Assembly (NCBI GenBank): GCA_943788775.1
Contig: CALSRO010000003.1
Span: forward strand, 248,001-312,000
Direction: 5' to 3'
Origin: an uncultured Flavobacteriales bacterium
GTDB taxonomy: Bacteria > Bacteroidota > Bacteroidia > Flavobacteriales_G > Salibacteraceae
DNA length: 64,000 nt
Below are positions 6,968 to 38,262 of the stretch, in pieces. A program made the translations under genes and the position numbers. Position 1 is the first letter of the stretch; the number at the start of each line of letters is the position of its first letter. The notes under the pieces were generated by a model. The model was given only the letters and a program-made list of their open reading frames with translations, had not been told where the DNA came from and searched no databases.

Positions 6968-9139
6968 CTAGTGCGTTTCCTCCGCAGCCGATTCTTCCGT
7001 GGCAGTCTCATCTGAACCATAAGAGATCGTTTCGCCCATGTTGTAGAACATAAACGCCCACTTATCCGCTTGCTCCTGTATGATCATAGAAGTAGGTTTT
7101 CCTGCACCGTGTCCCGCTTTCACATCCACTCGAATTAATACAGGATTAGCACCAACATGAGCATCTTGTAGGGCAGCAGCGAACTTGAATGAGTGGGCAG
7201 GCACTACTCTATCGTCATGATCTGCCGTAGTAACCATAGTAGCAGGGTAATGTGTTCCAGCCTTCGTGTTGTGCACTGGCGAATAACCTAACAAGTACTT
7301 AAACATCTCCTCACTCTCGTCCGAGTTACCATAATCATAGGTCCAACCCGCTCCCGAAGTAAACTTGTGATAACGCAACATATCTAATACCCCAACCGCT
7401 GGAAAAGCAACCCTCATCAAATCTGGACGCTGAGTCATGGTTGCTCCAACTAAAAGACCTCCGTTAGAGCCACCAGCAACAGCCAGTTTTTCAGATGAAG
7501 TGTATTTGTTTGCAATTAGCCATTCAGCAGCGGCAATAAAATCATCAAAAACATTTTGCTTCTGTGTTTTGGTTCCAGCGCTGTGCCATTTCTCGCCATA
7601 TTCTCCACCTCCACGAAGGTTAGCCACAGCAAATACGCCTCCGTTTTCCATCAATACAATATTGGAAGTACTGAAGTTTGGCGTCAAACTAATGTTGAAT
7701 CCACCGTAACCATAGAGCATGGTTGGGTGCGTTCCGTCCAGTTCTAAACCTTTCTTATGAGTAATGATCATAGGCACCTTGGTTCCATCCTTGGATGTGT
7801 AGAACACCTGCTTGCTTTCGAATTGAGTCGGATCAAATTTCACTCCCGATTCTTTATAAACTTCCGATGTTCCAGAAGCGATGTCATACTTGAAAATGGT
7901 TGGTGGATACACGTAAGAAGTAAAGCTATAGTAAAACTCCGTGTCTTCCAGCTCACCTCCAAATCCGCCAGCCGATCCTACACCTGGCAGTTCAATTTCT
8001 CGCTCCACATTTCCTTCGGCATCAATCTGCAATACCATACTTGTGGCATCTTTCAAATAATTCGCGAAGAACTTGCCGCCTGCCGTTCCCACTCGCAATA
8101 CATTTTCGGACTCAGCGATAAAGTCCACCCATGTGTCTGGCATTGGATTCTTAATACTGGTGGACACTACTTTGCCATTAGGCGCATTCATGTTCGTTTT
8201 GATAAAAAGTTTCTCGCCTTCACTGTGAATCACCCAATGATCATTTTCGAAATTGTCGATGATCTGCACGATTTCGCTTCCCTCTTTTCGTAAATCTTGA
8301 ATGTATAGTTCATTTCCGGTGGTGGATGTGGCAGCGCTAATGGTCAAGTAGTTACCGTCTTCCGTAACTCCTCCTCCAATGTATCTTCTAGGCGTGGCAT
8401 CACCACCAAAGACTAATTTGTCCGAAGATTGCGCTGTTCCCAATTGGTGATAAAACAGTTTGTGATATTGTGTCAATCCGCTCAGCTCACTTCCTTCTTT
8501 CGGCTTATCGTAACTGCTGTAATAGAAACCATCATTGCCTTTCCAGCTGATTCCAGAAAACTTAATATCAATCAGTGTATCTTCTAATATTTCTTTGGTT
8601 TCCGCATCCATGACAATCACTTTTCGCCAATCCGATCCTCCTTCTGAAATTTGGAAAGCTAGTTTTGATCCGTCTTTCGTAAAGCTCACACCTGCGAGCG
8701 ATGTTGTACCATCCGAAGAAAACTCATTTGGATTCAGGAATACTTCAGGCTCTCCATCTCCTTGCTGACGATACATCACACTTTGATTTTGCAATCCATC
8801 ATTTTTATAGAAGTAAGTATAGTCTCCTTTAACAGAGGGCGCTGAGAATTTCTCATAATCCCACAACTCTGTCAATCGCTCTTTGATTTGATCCCGAAAT
8901 GGAATTTTATCTAAATAACCAAAGGTCAACTCATTTTGTGCTTTCACCCAAGCCCCCGTTTCCTCGGACAAATCATCTTCTAACCAACGATAAGGGTCGG
9001 CCACTTTAGTTCCGAAATAATCATCCACAACGGTGGTATCCTTTCTTGTTTCAGGGTACATCAATCCTTCTTCCATGGGTTCTTCTGGGCTAGTGCAGGC
9101 TCCTAAAAGAGCGACCGCAAAAAATAAACTTCTTCTCAT
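6968..9139 (-). CDS. Prolyl oligopeptidase (S9A), lipoprotein
   Basis: 723 residues, the usual S9A length plus a lipoprotein signal (LLGAC, Cys15). An N-terminal seven-bladed propeller (about 95-430) covers a C-terminal alpha/beta-hydrolase domain. Catalytic residues visible are Ser558 in GGSNGG, Asp642/643 in DHDDRVVP and His677 in AGHGAGKP. The early motif DPYRWLED (48-55) is typical of the family. It cleaves short peptides after proline and is probably anchored in the periplasm or on the surface to degrade peptides. The tail after about 705 is acidic and low in complexity. Confidence 0.95.
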   Translation of the reverse strand: MRRSLFFAVALLGACTSPEEPMEEGLMYPETRKDTTVVDDYFGTKVADPYRWLEDDLSEETGAWVKAQNELTFGYLDKIPFRDQIKERLTELWDYEKFSAPSVKGDYTYFYKNDGLQNQSVMYRQQGDGEPEVFLNPNEFSSDGTTSLAGVSFTKDGSKLAFQISEGGSDWRKVIVMDAETKEILEDTLIDIKFSGISWKGNDGFYYSSYDKPKEGSELSGLTQYHKLFYHQLGTAQSSDKLVFGGDATPRRYIGGGVTEDGNYLTISAATSTTGNELYIQDLRKEGSEIVQIIDNFENDHWVIHSEGEKLFIKTNMNAPNGKVVSTSIKNPMPDTWVDFIAESENVLRVGTAGGKFFANYLKDATSMVLQIDAEGNVEREIELPGVGSAGGFGGELEDTEFYYSFTSYVYPPTIFKYDIASGTSEVYKESGVKFDPTQFESKQVFYTSKDGTKVPMIITHKKGLELDGTHPTMLYGYGGFNISLTPNFSTSNIVLMENGGVFAVANLRGGGEYGEKWHSAGTKTQKQNVFDDFIAAAEWLIANKYTSSEKLAVAGGSNGGLLVGATMTQRPDLMRVAFPAVGVLDMLRYHKFTSGAGWTYDYGNSDESEEMFKYLLGYSPVHNTKAGTHYPATMVTTADHDDRVVPAHSFKFAAALQDAHVGANPVLIRVDVKAGHGAGKPTSMIIQEQADKWAFMFYNMGETISYGSDETATEESAAEETH

Positions 9140-12098: not shown

Positions 12099-13061
12099 TT
12101 ATTTGACTAAAGCTGTTTGGACGATTATCTTTTTAGTCAGCGCTCCTAAACGTGGATCAGTGGATTCAACAATGCCGGTTGAAACTGATTTGGTAACCCA
12201 AGTGGAGCTATAATCAAACGTGATCTCATTAACACTTGTAATGTCCATTTTGAAATCACTCATTTGATTTTTAGCCTTATCAGCTGTACTATCAGCAGCT
12301 CCATAAGCAGAAGCCATTTGTTCGACCATTGCCTTCATCATTTCAATAAACTCCGAAATATCCATAACAACCTCCTCTTCTATTATACACGTGGTAGATG
12401 CTTCATCCAACTGTTTTAAGGTATATAAGGTGGTTATATTAATCTCCATCATTGGATTGAATGGGTTTTCGCCCGATTCTACGGCACTTATCTGCTTTCC
12501 AATTTCAAAATCCTTGTTGAACGGAGTAAGCAGGTATCCAATGAATGTCTCCATATAATCCTCCGTTGTTTCCTTGCTTTTAAAAGCCATCTTCAACGGA
12601 GCAAAAACCAACCCCACCATCGATGACATCTCAGGAATTTTTTCATCAAACAAATCCGTAATCGCATCATAGCTATCATTCATAAACAATTGAGCCTCTT
12701 CCCAATTTTGCAATTCAGTTTCTGTGGTGTACTTATCTATCGTAAAAATGAGCTTTAAGTCTTTGTATTCCTCCAGCTCATCGTCCATCTTGTAATACAT
12801 TTCGATGGCTGAAACCAAAGCTTGGTTTTCCATTAATACTTCAACTACATAATAATCTTTGTTTTCTGACAGAACCTCAATTCGAGTGTCATTGTATCGA
12901 GTAGAGTCGGACATAAGAGTTTCATTTTCATACTCGCGTTCATCAATTTGAATGCTGATCGTTTTAACATCCCCAACTTTCCAATTCGGTGTGTATCGAT
13001 ATACCTGAGCGTTAACTTCCAGCGCAGTAAAAAGTAGGGAACAGATCAATAAAGCTTTCAT
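12099..13061 (-). CDS. Exported protein of unknown function
   Basis: 320 residues from the ATG at 13061; the frame extends to 13097, but the signal peptide (MKALLICSLLFTALEVNAQ) begins at this inner Met. The mature part starts with 'YRYTPNWKVGDVKTISI' and is acidic and rich in beta strands and helices, with an alternating threonine/valine pattern like periplasmic lipid-binding or DUF-type proteins. No cysteine pair or catalytic motif is evident. It is divergent from ribBA and stands alone. Confidence 0.72.
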   Translation of the reverse strand: MKALLICSLLFTALEVNAQVYRYTPNWKVGDVKTISIQIDEREYENETLMSDSTRYNDTRIEVLSENKDYYVVEVLMENQALVSAIEMYYKMDDELEEYKDLKLIFTIDKYTTETELQNWEEAQLFMNDSYDAITDLFDEKIPEMSSMVGLVFAPLKMAFKSKETTEDYMETFIGYLLTPFNKDFEIGKQISAVESGENPFNPMMEINITTLYTLKQLDEASTTCIIEEEVVMDISEFIEMMKAMVEQMASAYGAADSTADKAKNQMSDFKMDITSVNEITFDYSSTWVTKSVSTGIVESTDPRLGALTKKIIVQTALVK

Positions 13062-30546: not shown

Positions 30547-30572
30547 AAAGGCTCCTTTTTGGAGCCTTTTTT
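30547..30572. terminator. Bidirectional terminator between convergent genes
   Basis: AAAGGCTCC-ttttt-GGAGCCTTT with A and T runs on both flanks, between the 29990 gene and the Kelch gene that converges on it from the other side. Confidence 0.85.
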
Positions 30573-31758
30573 ATTTCTGAATTACGATCCGAGCAGTTTT
30601 GTCTTTATTAGAACACGATAACTCCAACGTATAAATTCCATCCTCCTGATCACTAAAATCGAATTGATTATTGTTGTGTGGCACCTGTATTATTGTGCCA
30701 GTACAATCATAAATTAGCAAACTACAATCTTGCAGATCTGTTTGGTCATAATAGTATGACACCAATTCTCTAGATGGATTCGGCCAAACATGTAACCAGT
30801 TATCAAATTGAAATGTAAGTGGATTTTGAATCTTAAAAACAGAATCAATTCGTGTATAGTTTTCTGTAAGCCCTCCAACAAAGTAGGATGTTTGATCAAT
30901 CGTGAACCCTTTGCTTCCTCGCAAAGAAATGGATGGTGAATCTGAGACCAATGACCAATCCATATTTGCGGTATTTAGCAAATACACTTCGTTTGTCAAT
31001 TTTGTATTCTCATCCTGACCACCAAAAAAAATCACTCCAAAATTCGTCTCTGAAACTGCAATATAGCTGCGTGATTGACCTGGAAAGTCACCTATGGCTT
31101 TCCAGTTTCCACTTGCAGGATCATATGACCAAATGTTTTTTAAATGTGAGTTTGTATCCTGACCCAAGCCCATCCAGCCTATTCCATTTGACTGAAAACC
31201 AACCATATCAAACCTAGGTTCAAATGGCAAATCATCCATTTTCTCCCATGTTAAACTATGCATATCGAACTTCCAAAAATCAGAGTGAACTAGAGAATCA
31301 CTTACCCCACCCCCGCAATAGAAATTATGCCCGATACGGAATCCAGCCATCTTCGCCCTAGCTTCAAATGGAGCTTGAAAAACCTCCCATGTATTTGAGC
31401 TTGGATCGTATACCAGCAGTTCGTTGGTAAAGTCTCCGACATCTAAAATCCCCCCCAATACGAAACCATGATCAGAAGAATTGAAACCTAATGAATATTG
31501 GCGAGCGTTGGTTGGTATAGAGGCGACCTCAGTCCAATTCTTAGTCATTGGATCAAAACACCACATATCTTTTCGAACCTGGAAATAGAGATCATTTCCA
31601 AGACCATAGTAGCCCTTGTCGTTAATTGTGAATGCGGAACCATCGTCCCGTGGCCCTCCAGAAAAAGAGCCGACATGGTCCAATCTAAGCATCGCTTCTT
31701 GTGACGATGCAGCGTAGCTAATTAGAATTAAAAGTAGTATAGCGGCAAATCCTTTCAA
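30571..31758 (-). CDS. Kelch-repeat T9SS type A protein
   Basis: 395 residues with a TTG start; no in-frame ATG precedes the signal peptide (GFAAILLLILISYAASSQ). A six-bladed Kelch propeller fills about 20-320: recurring GYYGLG.., FVLGG.., FYCGGGV.., GWMGLGQ.., IFFGGQDEN.. and YFVGG.. blades, each with a following W. The C-terminal 75 residues form a type A sorting domain (VWPNPSRE, LLIYDCTG, QEDGIYTLEL, ending RIVIQK). It lies 29 bp after the ATP-grasp gene with no terminator between, so read-through from that operon is likely. Confidence 0.85.
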   Translation of the reverse strand: MKGFAAILLLILISYAASSQEAMLRLDHVGSFSGGPRDDGSAFTINDKGYYGLGNDLYFQVRKDMWCFDPMTKNWTEVASIPTNARQYSLGFNSSDHGFVLGGILDVGDFTNELLVYDPSSNTWEVFQAPFEARAKMAGFRIGHNFYCGGGVSDSLVHSDFWKFDMHSLTWEKMDDLPFEPRFDMVGFQSNGIGWMGLGQDTNSHLKNIWSYDPASGNWKAIGDFPGQSRSYIAVSETNFGVIFFGGQDENTKLTNEVYLLNTANMDWSLVSDSPSISLRGSKGFTIDQTSYFVGGLTENYTRIDSVFKIQNPLTFQFDNWLHVWPNPSRELVSYYYDQTDLQDCSLLIYDCTGTIIQVPHNNNQFDFSDQEDGIYTLELSCSNKDKTARIVIQK

Positions 31759-31787: not shown

Positions 31788-33278
31788 TTACATCATTTTA
31801 AAACCACCAATCTCTGCAACCTTATCTTCAATTTGTGGAACATTCAGTGGTTCAACTGATTGGAATTCTCCTCTAATGGCATCGATCCATGTTCTAGATC
31901 GGTCTAATAGCTGAAAATCATCTGACATCAAGCGCCCCCTTACTACAAGAATTCCCATATCCGCACCTTCATATATGTAATCCCCCGCCTTTAATATTCG
32001 TAGAAAAAATGCTTCTTGCTCAGTTTCTACAGCTCTTCGGTGAGTATCCATCCGGTTAAAATGAATTTTGCCCTTTTCATCGATTCTATATATACCTGAA
32101 CGCGGAGCGGTGGTTATCTGTCGTACAGAATCTTCTGTGTGTTTTATTACCATTTGCCCCCAATCATCGATATTTTCAGGTAGATGCCACCTTTGATTGA
32201 TTGCATTGATACTTAATTCATAATCGCGATCCATATACTCCATAATATGGAACAGGAACAAAGGCGCATCTGCAAGAGCAAATACTGCATGATTTGTAAT
32301 GGAACTAGCTCCTGTTATTCGTGGGTTTAACTCTCCCAAATAGATTTCATGAGTATCTGTATCAATCAAGAAATCTAATTCGAAATAACCTTTATAACCT
32401 TCTTTACGCAGTTGATTTCCAAAAAGCTCAGCATATTTCTTGGCCTTCTTTCGAATTTTCGGGGTGAAACAATCGGCATAGATTTCATTTCCACACCAAC
32501 CTCCTTTGTATGGTGTAAGCTCTTTGAATCCAACCAATTCAGTCATCAAAGGAGCTACAATCGTTCCGTGTCGGGTCACACATGCCTCCATTGCCGCACC
32601 ACGACAATTGATGCGTTTCATCACTTTTACTTCCGCCTCAGCTTCAATTTCCTCAGCATACTTTTGATAGTCTTCTTCAGTATTGATAAAGAACGTTGTA
32701 TGTCCGCTGTCTCCAAAAGGAGTCTGAACCACCAGCTCGTCCCCGAGATGTTTAGAAACTTTGCGAAGTGTAACGAATGAGTCGACTTTAGTCAAGACAT
32801 TTGGTACTGTCGGAACACCTGCTTTTTCAGCAACTCGATTAGTAACTACCTTATTGTCTAAGTGAGTTCTTAAGCTTGCGGCCGGAAATGCCTGTTCCAA
32901 TCCAAGTTGTTTGGCCAGTTTTTCGGTCTTTTCGTCAAACATCAGAAATAGAGCTTTACCCCCATCTCCTCTTGATTTTATAAAATCTACAACTTCTTTA
33001 TGCTCAAGTAGGTAGTTTACTATGTCTTCAATGCTTTCAAAATCAGCATGAGGAAGCTCCTCCTTTGGCGTAAAAACATTCGGGTGTTGACCATCAAAAC
33101 AGTTGATGTAGGTAATGAACTTAAACCCCTTTATCCACTCATCTGCACCGAGCAAATTAAAGTTTGTTGCCGATATAAAATAAATGGGAGTTTCATTCTT
33201 ATAAAAGAATCTTCTTAGGTCATGTACGCCCCGTAAAACTTTAGGTTTTTCAGTCTTTTTCTTTTTAGTCTTGGCCAT
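31788..33278 (-). CDS. ATP-grasp ligase (biotin-carboxylase-like fold)
   Basis: 496 residues from the ATG at 33278, 2 bp after the upstream stop codon; the frame runs open further upstream but only inside the decarboxylase gene. An N-terminal pre-ATP-grasp domain covers about 25-140. The ATP-grasp core spans about 140-350: ELVVQTPFGDSGHTTFFI as the nucleotide loop, GYFELDFLIDTD, and the metal-binding GELNPRITGA with Glu316 and Asn318. There is no biotinyl domain or partner, so acetyl-CoA carboxylase is unlikely. It probably joins a carboxylate to an amine or similar group; the substrates are unknown. Confidence 0.85.
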   Translation of the reverse strand: MAKTKKKKTEKPKVLRGVHDLRRFFYKNETPIYFISATNFNLLGADEWIKGFKFITYINCFDGQHPNVFTPKEELPHADFESIEDIVNYLLEHKEVVDFIKSRGDGGKALFLMFDEKTEKLAKQLGLEQAFPAASLRTHLDNKVVTNRVAEKAGVPTVPNVLTKVDSFVTLRKVSKHLGDELVVQTPFGDSGHTTFFINTEEDYQKYAEEIEAEAEVKVMKRINCRGAAMEACVTRHGTIVAPLMTELVGFKELTPYKGGWCGNEIYADCFTPKIRKKAKKYAELFGNQLRKEGYKGYFELDFLIDTDTHEIYLGELNPRITGASSITNHAVFALADAPLFLFHIMEYMDRDYELSINAINQRWHLPENIDDWGQMVIKHTEDSVRQITTAPRSGIYRIDEKGKIHFNRMDTHRRAVETEQEAFFLRILKAGDYIYEGADMGILVVRGRLMSDDFQLLDRSRTWIDAIRGEFQSVEPLNVPQIEDKVAEIGGFKMM

Positions 33279-33280
33279 GG

Positions 33281-35983
33281 TTAGGAGTTTAGTGTTAAAG
33301 CCTCTTCTGTAAAAACTCTGAGACCTAAATCTGCATTGTATGAATGTATTTCGGTTACGTCTAGCGCCTGCATGAATTCCAGTATTCCCTTGGTCATTAC
33401 CTGACCAGGAACCAATATTGGAAATCCAGGAGGATATGGAATTACAAAAGATGCCGAGACAATTTCTCGACCCTTTTTCATTAATATAGCGCACTTTTCA
33501 ATGGGTAAGTTCTCGCATTTAGCCTCATTATAGGCCAAAAAGAAGGCATCACGAATGTTTCCCTCATCAGTTCTGGCGCTCTTAAACCTAGAGTGGAAAA
33601 ACGAAAAGTTCGGCAATGCCGGTAAGCGTTCGGTCAGGTTTATAACATGATCATCATGCAGCGCGGCTTCTTGTTTAGAAAATGAAGCCACACGTTCATC
33701 TAATTGCTGAGCAATTTTGATCAATACACCAATTAGCTTCGCTACCGAGCTTCTAGTTGTTCCGATGTTTGTCATAAACAAAACTGTGTTTCGTGATGTC
33801 TTATTGACTTGAATCCCGAATTGGTCCATAAGATACTTCTTCTTAAAGGTATCTCCATCAATTCCCGTGCGACCGATATATAAATTGATTTTTGTTGGGT
33901 CTAGAACAAATTCATCTTTTCTCCATTCCTGAGAGATATTCCCCCACCCCTTGTCCTTACTGTAGTATCGCTCAAAGCCTGATTTTCTATGCTCAAGCGG
34001 TATAAGGTTGGTAACGGTAAGAATGTCAAAATACTTGCGCAAGAGAGGAGTATTGGCAATTTTCATTCGAAGCATCATTGCCCGTTCCACACTTCTTTCA
34101 ACCAGTTCATTTCCTTCTAGCTCTGCTTGTCTTCTGCCCATATCAAGCGAAGCCAATATTTGATAGGAGGGTGAAGTAGAGGTATGGGTCATGTATGCTT
34201 CAATAAATGAGTCCTCGACTTTTTGAGCGAATTGTTCATCATAAATATGGATCATAGATCCTTGTCTCAAGCTGGTAAGTGTTTTGTGCGTTGATTGGGT
34301 CGCATAAACTCGAACTTTCACCATATCTGGATCTGGTAATCCATTTAAACTTTTCCCCGCTGATTTTAATGCATGATACTGCTCTCGATACTCTTCACTG
34401 CGGTACTTTTTAAGCAGTTTTTCTGCCGAGGCCATGGCCGTTCTTTTTCGGAACAAGGCTGAGAATCGTGCGTATCCAAACCATGCTTCATCCCATAAGA
34501 AGATCATATCTGGTTTAATGGCCAAAACCTCCTCCATAAATTGCTCTGCGTTGTAAACAATCCCATCGAATGTGCAATTGGTCAGCAACAGCATTTTTAC
34601 TTCATGAAGTCTTCCTGCTCTTTTGAACTCATTCAGTTTTTCCTTTATAAGTTTCAACGGAATACCACCATACATGGAATATTGCTCCAAATGATAAGAA
34701 TCCAAGTAAACCGGTTTCGCTCCGCTTAACACCAAGCCATAATGATGAGATTTATGACAATCTCTATCAATTAAAATCACGTCACCCGGCTGCACCAAAG
34801 CCTGCACTACAATTTTGTTGGCAGTACTAGTTCCATTCGTGACGAAGAAGCTTTGGCGGCTTCCAAACGCCCTCGATGCCATTTCCTGAGCCTTTTTTAA
34901 TGGTCCGGTTGGCTGTAATAACGAATCCAATCCCCCAGTCGTTGCACTTGTTTCCGCTAGGAAAATATTACGACCATAGAAGTCACCCATCTCTTTGATC
35001 CAGTTGCTCTTAAATATGCTATTTCCTCTCGAAATTGGCATGGCATGGAACACTCCAGTTGGCCGCTTACTATAACTAACAAGTGCATTATAGAATGGAG
35101 TTTCAAACCTTTCGTCAATACCTTTCAGAATATTTAAATGCAAATCAGTAAGGTCTTCTTGTCGATAGAAGATATTCCTGAAGTTATCTAAGGCCTCATT
35201 TGGTAGCTTTTCTACACTTAAGTCTGTAACAAGAAAGAGATCTAACTCTGGGCGTAGCTCCTTCACCTTCTTTCCAAGATAATTTCCAATCTCCGAAGAT
35301 CTTTTCGCAGCGGCCGTTTCAGAAAGCCAAGATGAGACGAATGGGCGGATGTTCTTTATCGAACCCTCAGCTTGAAAAGGAAAGTTGTATTTAATAATAC
35401 AACTTTGAATATTGTGGTTAAAGTTCAATGCGATCAAAGCGTCTTGAAAGGTTCGCACATGAACAACATCATAGTAAAATTCATCTTGGCGCGAATGCAG
35501 CGCTTTTAACTGATTTCGAAGGTCCTCTTGCTCTTCAAAATCAACATCATTTACAAAAAGGACTTCGAAATAATGCCCCTTTCTTTCCTTAGTTGATGTG
35601 AACTGAGCATTTGGATCCTCATTAATGTCAAGCGTCTCCGGAGATTCATAATAATAAGCTCGACTCACAAGCAATCGAACCAGTTCTTCTACGCTATTTG
35701 AGAAGGCAAAAAACTCTTTTCTTGTCAAGCAATCTTTCAGTAACGAAAGCTTTGACAGGCCAGGAAACGCCCAATATTTCTCAATTGAGGCAAGTTCATC
35801 GATGGTATTGAAGAGTGACTTTATCTGGTCCGCGTGATCGCTGTTTACATCTGCAGTAAGCTTTATTGCTGCGTCTTTTATCGTGTTCCAAAGCTCGGAT
35901 CTGTATTCTGAAACATTGTAATACTTTCTGTACGTAATGCTTGCGTTGGCTTTCGCCTTTACAGTCTGAATTTTGTCAGTCAT
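33281..35983 (-). CDS. Orn/Lys/Arg decarboxylase-like PLP enzyme
   Basis: 900 residues, longer than ordinary Orn/Lys/Arg decarboxylases (about 710-760). Residues 1-300 are an N-terminal extension without an obvious match except a receiver-like wing near 130-260. From about 305 comes the fold-type I PLP domain: TSATTGGLDSLLQPTGPLK, the FVTNGTSTANKI phosphate loop, LWDEAWFGYARF with Asp498, and STHKTLTSLRQGSMIH with PLP-binding Lys567. The C-terminal domain (about 780-900) has the family PYPPGFPILVPGQ segment. The substrate (Arg, Lys or Orn) is not decidable by eye. It overlaps the amidohydrolase gene by 4 bp. Confidence 0.9.
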   Translation of the reverse strand: MTDKIQTVKAKANASITYRKYYNVSEYRSELWNTIKDAAIKLTADVNSDHADQIKSLFNTIDELASIEKYWAFPGLSKLSLLKDCLTRKEFFAFSNSVEELVRLLVSRAYYYESPETLDINEDPNAQFTSTKERKGHYFEVLFVNDVDFEEQEDLRNQLKALHSRQDEFYYDVVHVRTFQDALIALNFNHNIQSCIIKYNFPFQAEGSIKNIRPFVSSWLSETAAAKRSSEIGNYLGKKVKELRPELDLFLVTDLSVEKLPNEALDNFRNIFYRQEDLTDLHLNILKGIDERFETPFYNALVSYSKRPTGVFHAMPISRGNSIFKSNWIKEMGDFYGRNIFLAETSATTGGLDSLLQPTGPLKKAQEMASRAFGSRQSFFVTNGTSTANKIVVQALVQPGDVILIDRDCHKSHHYGLVLSGAKPVYLDSYHLEQYSMYGGIPLKLIKEKLNEFKRAGRLHEVKMLLLTNCTFDGIVYNAEQFMEEVLAIKPDMIFLWDEAWFGYARFSALFRKRTAMASAEKLLKKYRSEEYREQYHALKSAGKSLNGLPDPDMVKVRVYATQSTHKTLTSLRQGSMIHIYDEQFAQKVEDSFIEAYMTHTSTSPSYQILASLDMGRRQAELEGNELVERSVERAMMLRMKIANTPLLRKYFDILTVTNLIPLEHRKSGFERYYSKDKGWGNISQEWRKDEFVLDPTKINLYIGRTGIDGDTFKKKYLMDQFGIQVNKTSRNTVLFMTNIGTTRSSVAKLIGVLIKIAQQLDERVASFSKQEAALHDDHVINLTERLPALPNFSFFHSRFKSARTDEGNIRDAFFLAYNEAKCENLPIEKCAILMKKGREIVSASFVIPYPPGFPILVPGQVMTKGILEFMQALDVTEIHSYNADLGLRVFTEEALTLNS

Positions 35984-36906
35984 TTGAATGCTTTTGAAAC
36001 AATTCCAGGATTAATGCCGTTGAATGGAGCTTCTATTTTATATGCAGCTTCGAGTGCATCACTTCTTGTTGGTTTTTCGATTGGTCCTAGCTGGTCAAGA
36101 TAAGGAAATTGCCGTCCATTTTGATAGATCTCAAAATTGACTTTTCTATCTCGCCAACTTTTTAGAGTTTGACCCAGCCTTAATGTTCCTTTTTCTCGAC
36201 TTCGTTGTACCCGTTCAAGATCTATTTCAAGTGGGATTATTTCATCACTTGTGTGTGCTTGATATAAGACTCTTCCATCGGGTCCACAAACAATAGATTG
36301 ACCATTGCCTCCAGCTTCCAGCCCGTTAATGTCGAAAACATAACATTGGTTTATTGCCGCTGTTGAACGAGCGATGCTTAGTTCAATTTCACGATCAATA
36401 GTATTGGTCAGTGTAGGATGAAGTATTACCTCAGCGCCCATTGTTGCTAATGTTCTAGATGTTTCTGGGAACCACATATCATAACAGATAGAAACTCCAA
36501 AACGACCTACGTTTGGCACGTCAAAAGTTAAGAATTGATCTCCACAATCCACACCTTCTTCATAAGGATAAAATGGAAACATTTTCCTATACCTTCCTAC
36601 CACCTCTCCATCTGGACTATATACTGAAGCTGTGTTGTAAATTTTACCATCCGTCTTTTCGAAAACAGAACCTGGAAGTAACCAAACTCTATGTTTTCGG
36701 GCCATTTCCCCAAAAACTTGATCAAATTCTTCTAATGGAGCAGCAAAGGCGGTCAAAGGTCCTCGAGCACATAATTCAGAAAACATCACCATTTGAACCC
36801 AAGGATAAATCCCCATCAGTAGGTCCAATTTGTATTTCATCATTGGCACATTACTATGCGCCCCACTCACATGCATTTGTACTCCAGCGATCGAAAAATT
36901 CTTCAT
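35980..36906 (-). CDS. Nitrilase-superfamily amidohydrolase
   Basis: 308 residues. The Glu-Lys-Cys triad of the carbon-nitrogen hydrolase family is complete: Glu44 in FSELC, Lys108 in YRKMFPF and Cys141 in SICYDMWFP. The C-terminal extension (about 255-308) is longer than in a minimal nitrilase. Relatives hydrolyse N-carbamoylputrescine, formamide, aliphatic amides or omega-amides. In this operon an amine-derived amide is a likely substrate, which is inference. Its stop codon overlaps the decarboxylase start (ATGA). Confidence 0.9.
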   Translation of the reverse strand: MKNFSIAGVQMHVSGAHSNVPMMKYKLDLLMGIYPWVQMVMFSELCARGPLTAFAAPLEEFDQVFGEMARKHRVWLLPGSVFEKTDGKIYNTASVYSPDGEVVGRYRKMFPFYPYEEGVDCGDQFLTFDVPNVGRFGVSICYDMWFPETSRTLATMGAEVILHPTLTNTIDREIELSIARSTAAINQCYVFDINGLEAGGNGQSIVCGPDGRVLYQAHTSDEIIPLEIDLERVQRSREKGTLRLGQTLKSWRDRKVNFEIYQNGRQFPYLDQLGPIEKPTRSDALEAAYKIEAPFNGINPGIVSKAFK

Positions 36907-36936
36907 CTATTTCAAATATAGTTTTATTGAACTCGC

Positions 36937-38262
36937 TTAAGCTCTATTCGTCAATTTCAGCAATTCTTGTTCAATTATATCAAGTCCTCTGTGCAATTGC
37001 TCATCTGTAATAACCAATGGACTAAGGACGCGAATTACATTTTTATGTGTTCCAGCACTTAATAAGATTAAACCTTGATCCGCACATGCTAGCATAAGAT
37101 CACGGCATAATTCGGAATCCGGCTGCCAAGGATCTCCATCCTTTACAAGTGGAAAGGCGACCATTGCGCCTAACCCTCTGACTTCGCCAATTTCAGGGCA
37201 CTTTTCACGAAGTGCTTCAAATCGAGATCGACAAATTTCACCAACTTTTCTTCCAAGTTCGTTGATGTTGATTTCCTTCATATACCTAATATTTGCCAGT
37301 GCTGCTGCTGCACACACAGGGTTGCCAGGATATGTACCTCCGATAGTGCCCGGGCTCACCGAGTCCATGATTTCGGCTTTCCCAATAACACAACCAATTG
37401 GCATGCCACCTCCCATGGATTTCGCCCAAGTTGTAATATCTGGAGTAACATCATAATGATGATAAGCCGCCCAATCTCCCGTTCTACCGAATCCGCTTTG
37501 AACTTCATCCAGAATTAATAGAATTCCAAATTCATCACACAACTTTCTCAATTCAGTCATATATGCTTTTGGCATGGGTACAAAACCGCCTTCACCCTGC
37601 ACTGGTTCTACGATAACCGCTGCGCAATTGTAAGGATCTACAGTAGCTAGTAGTGATTCCCTTAAGAGCATTATCTCGCGTTTCACGAAATCATCATAAG
37701 TTAGACCTCGACCATATCTGAAATGATTTGGAAACCGGAATCGATAAATTTCAGGAGCAAACGGCCCACAGTTAAGTTTATAAGCTGGTTTGGCCGTTAA
37801 GCTCATGGCCATCATTGTTCTCCCGTGAAAGGCATCACTGAAACAAATAACACCCTGTCTTTTTGTGGCCTGACGAGCAATTTTAATCGCATTCTCCACG
37901 CTCTCAGCTCCAGTGCATGTGAGCATTACTTTGGTCTTTTCTCCATGCGGGAAAAGTGATATTAACTCTTCTGCTAATTCCATATATACGTCATACGTTG
38001 CCACATTGAAACAAGTATGTATCAACTTCGCACTTTGTTCTTGTATGGCTTTGACCACTGGTTCTGGACAATGACCAGAATTAAGGACACCAATGCCACC
38101 ACCAAAGTCAATCAATTCGCGGCCATCGGCATCCGTAATGATCGCACCTTTTGCACTAACAGCTGTGGAAGGATTGAACACTCCAACACCGTTTGTAACC
38201 ACCTCTTTTCTCCTTTCAAAGAGTGCTTCGCTGTTTATTTTATCGACCACTATTTCAGCCAT
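36937..38262 (-). CDS. Class III aminotransferase (GabT-like)
   Basis: 441 residues, first gene of the operon. Fold-type I, class III PLP aminotransferase: the GAESVENAIKIAR phosphate-binding segment at 118-130, DAFHGRT near 143-149, EPVQGEGGF near 219-227, DEVQSGFGRTG (Asp252, Gln255) and the PLP lysine Lys281 in TWAKSMGGGMPIG. The closest known enzymes act on 4-aminobutyrate, ornithine or diamines. The next gene starts 30 bp downstream. The gene is divergent from recR, with an A/T-rich promoter gap. Confidence 0.93.
   Translation of the reverse strand: MAEIVVDKINSEALFERRKEVVTNGVGVFNPSTAVSAKGAIITDADGRELIDFGGGIGVLNSGHCPEPVVKAIQEQSAKLIHTCFNVATYDVYMELAEELISLFPHGEKTKVMLTCTGAESVENAIKIARQATKRQGVICFSDAFHGRTMMAMSLTAKPAYKLNCGPFAPEIYRFRFPNHFRYGRGLTYDDFVKREIMLLRESLLATVDPYNCAAVIVEPVQGEGGFVPMPKAYMTELRKLCDEFGILLILDEVQSGFGRTGDWAAYHHYDVTPDITTWAKSMGGGMPIGCVIGKAEIMDSVSPGTIGGTYPGNPVCAAAALANIRYMKEININELGRKVGEICRSRFEALREKCPEIGEVRGLGAMVAFPLVKDGDPWQPDSELCRDLMLACADQGLILLSAGTHKNVIRVLSPLVITDEQLHRGLDIIEQELLKLTNRA

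What the first reader, a model, noticed from the sequence alone, without database searches (positions are those of the whole stretch)
31788..38262. Coupled four-enzyme amine operon with no known pathway
Seen: on the minus strand a class III aminotransferase, a nitrilase-family amidohydrolase, a 900-residue Orn/Lys/Arg-decarboxylase-like enzyme and an ATP-grasp ligase follow with gaps of 30 bp, -4 bp and 2 bp, and all catalytic residues are present (Lys281; Glu44/Lys108/Cys141; Lys567; Glu316/Asn318). Known: PLP decarboxylases make diamines or agmatine, class III aminotransferases turn terminal amines into aldehydes, nitrilases cleave amides, ATP-grasp enzymes form amides or peptides. Inference: the set could work as a protect-convert-deprotect route, in the manner of gamma-glutamyl putrescine use, or build a conjugated amine. 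No agmatine deiminase, biotin carrier or polyketide gene is present to suggest a standard route.
Basis: partly seen in the sequence, partly recalled or inferred. Interest (0 to 1): 0.72.

Follow-up and report, generated by a model that had tools for sequence, protein, structure and literature searches.

The report
Uncharacterised operon feeding the GABA shunt
Four neighbouring genes belong to a widely shared set of enzymes, undescribed in the papers searched, that probably breaks down a basic amino acid through an amide-protected amine into GABA; the substrate is not yet known.

Summary
The four genes are real, with the stated coordinates, gaps and catalytic residues. They are part of a larger module. 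In 44 of 50 mapped loci (Bacteroidota, Pseudomonadota; chosen for holding DC or GRASP) the decarboxylase (DC) and ATP-grasp ligase (GRASP) lie together; 35 of these 44 also hold a C45 Ntn amidohydrolase that the window operon lacks, and 7 of 7 distant Bacteroidota loci add a succinate-semialdehyde dehydrogenase. Orthologues of both lie elsewhere in the window's genome. In 60 relatives intact C45 is in 13 of 14 DC+ genomes and 2 of 46 others. One congener lost the operon by an internal deletion. GRASP is labelled 'biotin carboxylase' but lacks the carboxylase domains and QVEH motif. DC is a relative of M. tuberculosis Rv2531c, solved but of unknown substrate. The aminotransferase keeps five GabT active-site residues. 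Neighbours elsewhere include a PuuR-like regulator with GabT, agmatinase, an arginine-to-GABA operon and ectoine catabolism. Best reading: a Puu-like decarboxylate-conjugate-convert-release route into the GABA shunt, with non-homologous ligase and hydrolase. Substrate, conjugated acid and oxidation step are inferred. An N-carbamoylputrescine route is excluded: no agmatine deiminase in the genome.

The parts
36937..38262 (-). AT: class III aminotransferase of the GABA aminotransferase kind
   Evidence: PF00202; 456 of 506.65 bits to TIGR00700; I57, R148, E224, K281, R411 match GabT I50, R141, E211, K268, R398
35980..36906 (-). CNH: nitrilase-superfamily amidohydrolase, substrate unknown
   Evidence: PF00795; E44, K108, C141 invariant in 14
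33281..35983 (-). DC: Orn/Lys/Arg-type PLP decarboxylase of the Rv2531c family
   Evidence: PF01276 278 bits; 780 bits to PDB 9n0n over residues 23-897; K567 invariant in 15
31788..33278 (-). GRASP: ATP-grasp enzyme, probably a carboxylate-amine ligase, labelled biotin carboxylase
   Evidence: NF005096 777 bits; D302, E316, N318 invariant, QVEH motif replaced in 17 of 17
30571..31758 (-). Kelch-like secreted protein (named by eye, not scanned), 29 bp behind GRASP; may be co-transcribed
   Evidence: Gap; a homologue sits behind GRASP in L018-L022
30547..30569 (.). Hairpin behind the kelch-like gene; reported as a terminator for the + strand only (no T-run on the minus strand)

Best explanation
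A catabolic operon that feeds the GABA shunt. DC decarboxylates a basic amino acid (arginine, ornithine or lysine; not determined) to an amine. GRASP spends ATP to join that amine to a carboxylic acid (glutamate is likeliest, by analogy with the Puu route), which protects it. After the free end has been oxidised, the C45 Ntn hydrolase and/or CNH cleaves the amide and frees an omega-amino acid, most likely GABA. AT turns GABA into succinate semialdehyde, and an SSADH (encoded elsewhere in this genome) makes succinate. SHOWN: gene content, conservation, co-occurrence, catalytic residues, the GABA-type aminotransferase and the SSADH partner. INFERRED: substrate, conjugated acid, order of steps, and which enzyme oxidises the amine.
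For: Distant Bacteroidota have one operon AT-CNH-DC-GRASP-(C45)-SSADH: SSADH in 7 of 7 loci (L025, L053-L058), C45 in 5 of 7. C45 tracks DC in 60 relatives: 13 of 14 against 2 of 46, Fisher p 3e-10, relatedness not corrected. Ligase and amidohydrolases in one set are the mark of protect-convert-deprotect routes (PuuA/PuuD; recalled). AT keeps five GabT residues. Near roseobacter-type copies stand a PuuR-like regulator (two scanned: 135.6 and 142.5 bits, below the cut-off of 211) and GabT (two scanned, both over TIGR00700's cut-off). Agmatinase-family genes stand near it in L083 and L085 and in the arginine-to-GABA operons L033 and L037. Two gene orders exist (CNH-DC-GRASP-C45 and CNH-GRASP-C45-DC), so the genes stayed together through rearrangement. 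In L034 an annotated FAD oxidase (solA) and an amine ABC transporter lie downstream of DC. A separate arginine decarboxylase-like gene and an agmatinase-family gene lie 0.5 kb apart in the genome, so DC need not serve polyamine synthesis.
Against: No amine oxidase or diamine aminotransferase was recognised beside the core itself (most neighbours were not scanned), and a GabT-type active site does not suit a conjugated diamine. Two amidohydrolases are one more than a Puu-like route needs. In L033/L037 GRASP and C45 stand in an arginine racemase/dehydrogenase/AruI operon in which a diamine conjugate has no obvious place; in L073/L074 the set sits in an ectoine cluster. The likeness of GRASP to the tyramine-glutamate ligase model MfnD is 16.6 bits (E 0.004), weaker than to carboxylases (28.7 bits). 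G042 has DC and GRASP but no C45 match; G006 and G011 have C45 without DC. On plasmids DC relatives covering at least 80% are in 48 records, GRASP in 24, so DC also occurs without GRASP. The PuuR likeness is below its cut-off.
Confidence: 0.42

Rival explanations
1. Ebony/Tan-like cycle: GRASP joins an omega-amino acid (GABA or beta-alanine) to the amine made by DC, giving a stored, osmotic or signalling amide; C45 (the family of Drosophila Tan, recalled) or CNH cleaves it again, and AT with SSADH burns the surplus GABA.
For: Ligase and C45 hydrolase lie side by side in most loci with C45; GABA-type AT and SSADH partners; L033/L037 make GABA in the same operon; in L073/L074 the set sits with solute catabolism.
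Against: A ligase and a hydrolase for the same bond in one operon would be futile without regulation; Lrp, PuuR-like and transporter neighbours look catabolic; no exporter recognised.
Confidence: 0.15
2. Arginine/guanidino route: DC makes agmatine; GRASP, C45 and CNH act on agmatine or 4-guanidinobutyrate derivatives on the way to GABA, together with a ureohydrolase.
For: Agmatinase-family gene near CNH in L083 and L085; L033/L037 carry a complete-looking arginine-to-GABA set with GRASP and C45; this genome has two ureohydrolase-family genes.
Against: No ureohydrolase was recognised in the Bacteroidota loci mapped; a ureohydrolase already does the job without a ligase; nearest relative Rv2531c was not needed for growth on arginine (PMC4569260, passage).
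Confidence: 0.15
3. Amide-tethered decarboxylation: GRASP makes a gamma-glutamyl amide, DC decarboxylates its glutamyl part, and C45 or CNH releases GABA, so no amine oxidation is needed.
For: Explains the lack of a recognised oxidase, the GabT-type AT, the constant DC-GRASP pairing (44 of 50 loci) and the gamma-glutamyltransferase near L072.
Against: Gives back the amine and costs ATP for a net glutamate-to-GABA step; DC relatives occur without GRASP; known enzymes of this fold act on free basic amino acids (recalled).
Confidence: 0.12
4. Polyamine biosynthesis or the N-carbamoylputrescine route: DC makes agmatine and CNH is N-carbamoylputrescine amidohydrolase.
For: Best NCBIfam model for CNH is TIGR03381 (76.9 bits).
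Against: Cut-off is 410 bits; agmatine deiminase family absent from the genome, and over 290 bits in only 1 of 14 DC+ relatives; separate decarboxylase-like and agmatinase-family pair; does not explain GRASP, AT or SSADH.
Confidence: 0.03
5. GRASP is a true biotin carboxylase, as annotated.
For: NF005096 name; remote matches to carboxylases.
Against: No carboxylase N- or C-terminal domain and no biotinyl domain at E 0.1; QVEH replaced in 17 of 17.
Confidence: 0.02

Closest known systems
E. coli Puu (gamma-glutamylputrescine) pathway (enzyme classes recalled)
   Same: Ligase plus amidohydrolase around an amine, GABA aminotransferase and succinate-semialdehyde dehydrogenase at the end, PuuR-like regulator near roseobacter-type copies
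   Different: ATP-grasp instead of the glutamine-synthetase-type PuuA, C45 Ntn and nitrilase-type hydrolases instead of the class I amidotransferase-type PuuD, own decarboxylase, no PuuB-like oxidase recognised beside the core
Mycobacterium tuberculosis Rv2531c (PDB 9n0n, 9n0o, 9n0p)
   Same: Full-length relative of DC, 780 bits
   Different: Activity not clarified (PMC12910592, passages); partner genes were not searched in that genome
Arginine racemase/dehydrogenase/AruI route to GABA (plasmid loci L033, L037)
   Same: Contains GRASP and C45 orthologues with a CNH relative nearby; by its enzymes ends at GABA
   Different: Has a TPP-dependent 2-keto-acid decarboxylase in the operon instead of DC
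Ectoine/hydroxyectoine catabolism (EutDE-AsnC-Ssd-Atf)
   Same: In L073/L074 the quartet sits between AsnC and Ssd-Atf
   Different: The passages that I read of PMC8739950 and PMC5320631 do not name these four enzymes; Atf is another aminotransferase subfamily (PRK07482)
Methanogen MfnA/MfnD: tyrosine decarboxylase and tyramine-glutamate ligase (roles recalled)
   Same: Decarboxylation product joined to glutamate by an ATP-grasp enzyme
   Different: Only 16.6 bits between GRASP and the MfnD model; biosynthetic

Membership tests
GABA aminotransferase (GabT) | Class III fold with GabT active-site residues I50, R141, E211, K268, R398 | tested here: met
   5 of 5 in the alignment to 1SF2, letters checked; roles of the residues recalled
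GABA aminotransferase (GabT) | Score over the curated cut-off of TIGR00700 or NF005376 | tested here: not met
   456 of 506.65 and 484 of 676 bits: close relative, not filed as GabT
Orn/Lys/Arg decarboxylase (AAT fold, extended form) | OKR_DC_1 domain with PLP lysine | tested here: met
   PF01276 278 bits; Lys567 in STHK invariant in 15
Orn/Lys/Arg decarboxylase (AAT fold, extended form) | N-terminal OKR_DC_1_N domain | tested here: inconclusive
   PF03709 16.2 bits, cut-off 29.3
Orn/Lys/Arg decarboxylase (AAT fold, extended form) | Activity on Orn, Lys or Arg | not testable with these tools
   Far below the specific NCBIfam cut-offs (best LdcC 239 of 968)
Biotin carboxylase | N- and C-terminal carboxylase domains (PF00289, PF02785; accessions recalled) and a biotinyl domain | tested here: not met
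   Not among the 3 Pfam families reported at E 0.1
Biotin carboxylase | QVEH motif after E-x-N-P-R (role recalled) | tested here: not met
   3tw6 NPRIQVEH against NPRITGAS; replaced in 17 of 17
ATP-grasp carboxylate-amine ligase | ATP/Mg residues (D/E, E, N) | tested here: met
   D302, E316, N318, R320 invariant in 17
ATP-grasp carboxylate-amine ligase | Forms an amide from an acid and an amine | not testable with these tools
   Structure prediction failed (mean pLDDT 38.4)
N-carbamoylputrescine amidohydrolase (AguB) | Over TIGR03381's cut-off; agmatine deiminase in the genome | tested here: not met
   76.9 of 410 bits; PF04371 absent from G000
C45 Ntn hydrolase (partner outside the window) | NF040521/PF03417 match, invariant Gly-Cys cleavage site and R-N-Y-D | tested here: met
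   L026 167 and L031 190 bits to NF040521, cut-off 85; own copy over PF03417's cut-off, 105.9 bits; G89-C90 and R104-D107 invariant in 15
Puu pathway | GS-type PuuA, FAD oxidase PuuB, class I GAT PuuD | tested here: inconclusive
   Not recognised among the neighbours that carried annotation or were scanned, apart from an annotated FAD oxidase (solA) in L034; most neighbours were not scanned. 'Works like' is the claim, not membership

The most novel reading that the evidence does not exclude
The set is an amide-tethered decarboxylation route: an ATP-grasp enzyme makes a gamma-glutamyl amide, a decarboxylase of the Rv2531c family removes the carboxylate of its glutamyl part, and an Ntn or nitrilase-type amidase releases GABA, so GABA is reached without any amine oxidation. 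That would give the Rv2531c family a class of substrate not known (to my recall) for this fold.
Probability: 0.12. Interest if true: 0.8.

Novelty: new variant of a known kind. Interest (0 to 1): 0.55.

Why it matters
The module recurs in two phyla, on chromosomes and on plasmids including rhizobial ones, and no description of it was found in the papers searched. It puts an orphan decarboxylase family with a solved but unexplained member (Rv2531c), and an ATP-grasp family that carries a doubtful 'biotin carboxylase' label, into one testable context ending at GABA. If right, it is another, independently assembled way to turn a basic amino acid or its amine into GABA and succinate, relevant to nitrogen use in aquatic and plant-associated bacteria.

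Tried and rejected
Structure prediction of GRASP from a 5-row alignment gave mean pLDDT 38.4 and no usable model, so no fold search was run. N-carbamoylputrescine route: rejected for lack of agmatine deiminase. Polyamine biosynthesis: disfavoured because an arginine decarboxylase-like gene and an agmatinase-family gene lie 0.5 kb apart on C11; the former reaches only 121.6 bits of a 624-bit cut-off, as no genome of the 60 passes it, so its name is tentative. Biotin carboxylase: rejected. Profile search of C45 against the PDB gave 3 weak choloylglycine hydrolases (E 0.005-0.02), no substrate hint. Promoter-like sites show no excess over shuffles (23 against 20.8, sd 5.2; terminator-like sites 11 against 6.2, sd 2.8). 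Literature, listings seen only: searches (20 of 37 papers listed; 0; 2 of 2; 1 of 1; 0; 8 of 73): none described this set by title or abstract start. One search listed 3 papers; two were read in passages. led to PMC8503589 (passages), which gave no specificity rule. The cryo-EM paper on Rv2531c is not held. Decarboxylase specificity from pocket residues was not attempted: no coordinates on hand.
Full report
OBSERVATION. The four genes are as described: AT 36937-38262, CNH 35980-36906, DC 33281-35983, GRASP 31788-33278, all minus strand, gaps 30, -4 and 2 bp. A fifth ORF (30571-31758, kelch-like by eye, not scanned) follows after 29 bp; a hairpin lies behind it at 30547-30569, reported as a terminator for the + strand only. 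The named catalytic residues are present, and those of CNH, DC and GRASP are invariant in 14, 15 and 17 sequences.

FAMILIES. AT is a class III aminotransferase nearest to GABA aminotransferase: 456 bits to TIGR00700 (cut-off 506.65), 484 to NF005376 (cut-off 676). Aligned to E. coli GabT (1SF2) it keeps I50, R141, E211, K268 and R398 as I57, R148, E224, K281 and R411 (roles of these residues recalled). DC is an Orn/Lys/Arg-type decarboxylase far from the characterised specificities (best NCBIfam 239 bits, cut-off 968) but a full-length relative of PDB 9n0n/9n0o, M. tuberculosis Rv2531c (780 bits). A 2026 review says the activity of that enzyme is not clarified (PMC12910592, passages), and a 2015 paper says its gene is not crucial for growth on arginine (PMC4569260, one passage). 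GRASP belongs to NF005096 'biotin carboxylase' (777 bits, cut-off 684), but Pfam reports neither the N- nor C-terminal carboxylase domain nor a biotinyl domain, and the QVEH motif of carboxylases is replaced in 17 of 17 homologues while the ATP/Mg residues stay. CNH is a nitrilase-superfamily enzyme; none of its 12 NCBIfam matches reaches a cut-off.

THE WIDER MODULE. I mapped 50 loci from 49 genomes or records, all chosen because they hold DC or GRASP. DC and GRASP stand together in 44. Of the other six, L033 and L037 have GRASP without DC nearby, L034 has DC without GRASP (same plasmid as L033), L088 has GRASP only, L089 has DC near a contig end, and L090 has a GRASP fragment with C45. 35 of the 44 have a C45 gene in the locus (truncated in L035, divergent in L078). 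Of the nine without, seven (L018-L024) are near relatives of the window with C45 elsewhere in the genome, L025's genome has no C45 match, and L058's genome was not searched. In distant Bacteroidota the operon reads AT-CNH-DC-GRASP-C45-SSADH: SSADH in 7 of 7 (L025, L053-L058), C45 in 5 of 7. In Pseudomonadota two orders exist, CNH-DC-GRASP-C45 and CNH-GRASP-C45-DC (L073, L074, L077). A DC tree of 40 rows puts the 17 Bacteroidota on one side of a branch supported at 97/97. Pairwise distances of the four proteins rise together (Spearman 0.80-0.93 within Pseudomonadota, 0.33-0.65 within Bacteroidota), which relatedness alone would also give.

THE WINDOW'S OWN GENOME. A C45 orthologue is at G000:C3:405715-406668 (57% to that of L026), about 94 kb past the window's end, and an SSADH relative at G000:C5:141815-143167 (56% to that of L053 over 451 residues). 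So all six functions are encoded. The agmatine deiminase family is absent. An arginine decarboxylase-like gene (121.6 bits, cut-off 624) and an arginase-family gene lie 0.5 kb apart on C11, a likely polyamine-synthesis pair separate from the operon.

CO-OCCURRENCE AND LOSS. Among 60 relatives (35 of one family) DC is in 14, not counting a 19-bit partial match in G045. GRASP is in the same 14, unbroken in 13 and with stops in G032. Intact C45 is in 13 of the 14 and in 2 of the 46 others (G006, G011); G012 has a C45 with six stops, and G018 and G020 have partial matches, none of them counted. Fisher p is 3e-10 without correction for relatedness. As a contrast, the agmatine deiminase family shows no such link (4 of 14 against 15 of 46, p 1). 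In G011 the operon's place holds AT residues 10-100 followed directly by the last 81 residues of GRASP, with the flanking genes, among them the kelch-like one, still there: one internal deletion removed the pathway. This suggests that the genes are useful only together, although C45 stayed in G011 and G006.

NEIGHBOURS. PuuR-like regulator genes are near the set in six loci, L015, L031, L040, L075, L076 and L086; the two scanned score 135.6 and 142.5 bits to PuuR (cut-off 211), and the GabT genes beside these two are over TIGR00700's cut-off (542.8 and 570). Agmatinase-family genes lie one ORF upstream of CNH in L083 and L085 (L083 scanned: 193.6 bits, cut-off 174.3) and in the L033/L037 operons, which also hold a 2-ketoarginine decarboxylase (L033: 733 bits, cut-off 500), an aldehyde dehydrogenase, a D-amino acid dehydrogenase, a racemase-arginase fusion (L033 scanned) and RidA. 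L074 holds the quartet inside an ectoine/hydroxyectoine cluster (EutD, EutE and EutB models over cut-off), and L073 has the same genes at 80-89% identity. L072 has a gamma-glutamyltransferase in the divergent neighbourhood (645 bits, cut-off 358). In L034 DC is followed, several genes on, by an amine ABC transporter and an annotated FAD oxidase, solA. ABC transporters follow in L031, L032 and L036 and a DctM-type TRAP gene precedes CNH in L071 (scanned) and, by 75-81% identity, in L015, L040, L075, L076, L087 and L089. Most other neighbours were not scanned.

MECHANISM. The end of the route is the best supported part. GABA-type or Atf-type aminotransferases and SSADHs of different subfamilies accompany the same core in different lineages, and PuuR-like, GabT and agmatinase neighbours point the same way. 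The core of decarboxylase, ATP-dependent enzyme and amidohydrolases fits decarboxylation, protection, conversion and release. What does not fit: no oxidase recognised beside the core, one hydrolase too many, and the arginine and ectoine contexts. I therefore give the Puu-like reading 0.42 and list five rivals.

RHIZOBIAL COPIES. On plasmids of rhizobia DC-GRASP-C45 occurs next to ABC transporters, once beside nifHDK (L036). CNH survives there as a short C-terminal remnant in L036 and L039 and gave no match in L032 and L035. L035 has a split DC and a truncated C45 beside a transposase gene. These copies look partly decayed.

LIMITS. GRASP is carried by 7 of 395 Bacteroidota (the window's own genome included), 11 of 398 genomes of the phylum of G453 and 11 of 385 of its class (two genomes, G453 and G536, are in both of the last two), so the module is scattered. 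On plasmids DC relatives of at least 80% coverage are in 48 records and GRASP in 24, so DC also lives without GRASP. No activity is shown for any member. The rest of the 64-kb window was not studied.

Noticed in passing
L094 (G011) 12173-12684, minus strand: Deletion scar at the operon's place: AT residues 10-100 run straight into the last 81 residues of GRASP, with flanking genes kept; C45 kept elsewhere in that genome.
   Followed up: yes
window 30571-31758: Kelch-like secreted ORF (by eye) 29 bp behind GRASP, same strand; a homologue is at that place in L018-L022 (36% in L018, 29% in L094). A metabolic operon ending in a surface-type protein is odd.
   Followed up: partly
L026 11585-15623; ORFs of like size in L028, L029, L030: A 944-aa protein without Pfam or NCBIfam match and a glycosyltransferase family 9 gene stand between DC and GRASP.
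   Followed up: partly
L025 13288-13998: A 236-aa orphan without Pfam match stands where C45 stands in sister operons, in a genome (G042) without a C45 match: possibly a replacement hydrolase.
   Followed up: partly
L036 7756-7848 and L039 11814-11987: C-terminal remnants of CNH between DC and GRASP on rhizobial plasmids; L036 lies next to nifHDK; L035 has a split DC and a truncated C45 beside a transposase gene.
   Followed up: partly
L033 12801-14588: A fusion of an alanine-racemase N-terminal domain with an arginase-family domain in an arginine-to-GABA operon (annotated 'alanine racemase').
   Followed up: no
L074 5133-18864 and L073 489-14444: Ectoine/hydroxyectoine catabolic clusters with CNH-GRASP-C45-DC inserted between asnC and ssd-atf.
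   Followed up: partly
L019 around 7262-8197: The aminotransferase of G010 appears as two ORFs (frame break or assembly error).
   Followed up: no
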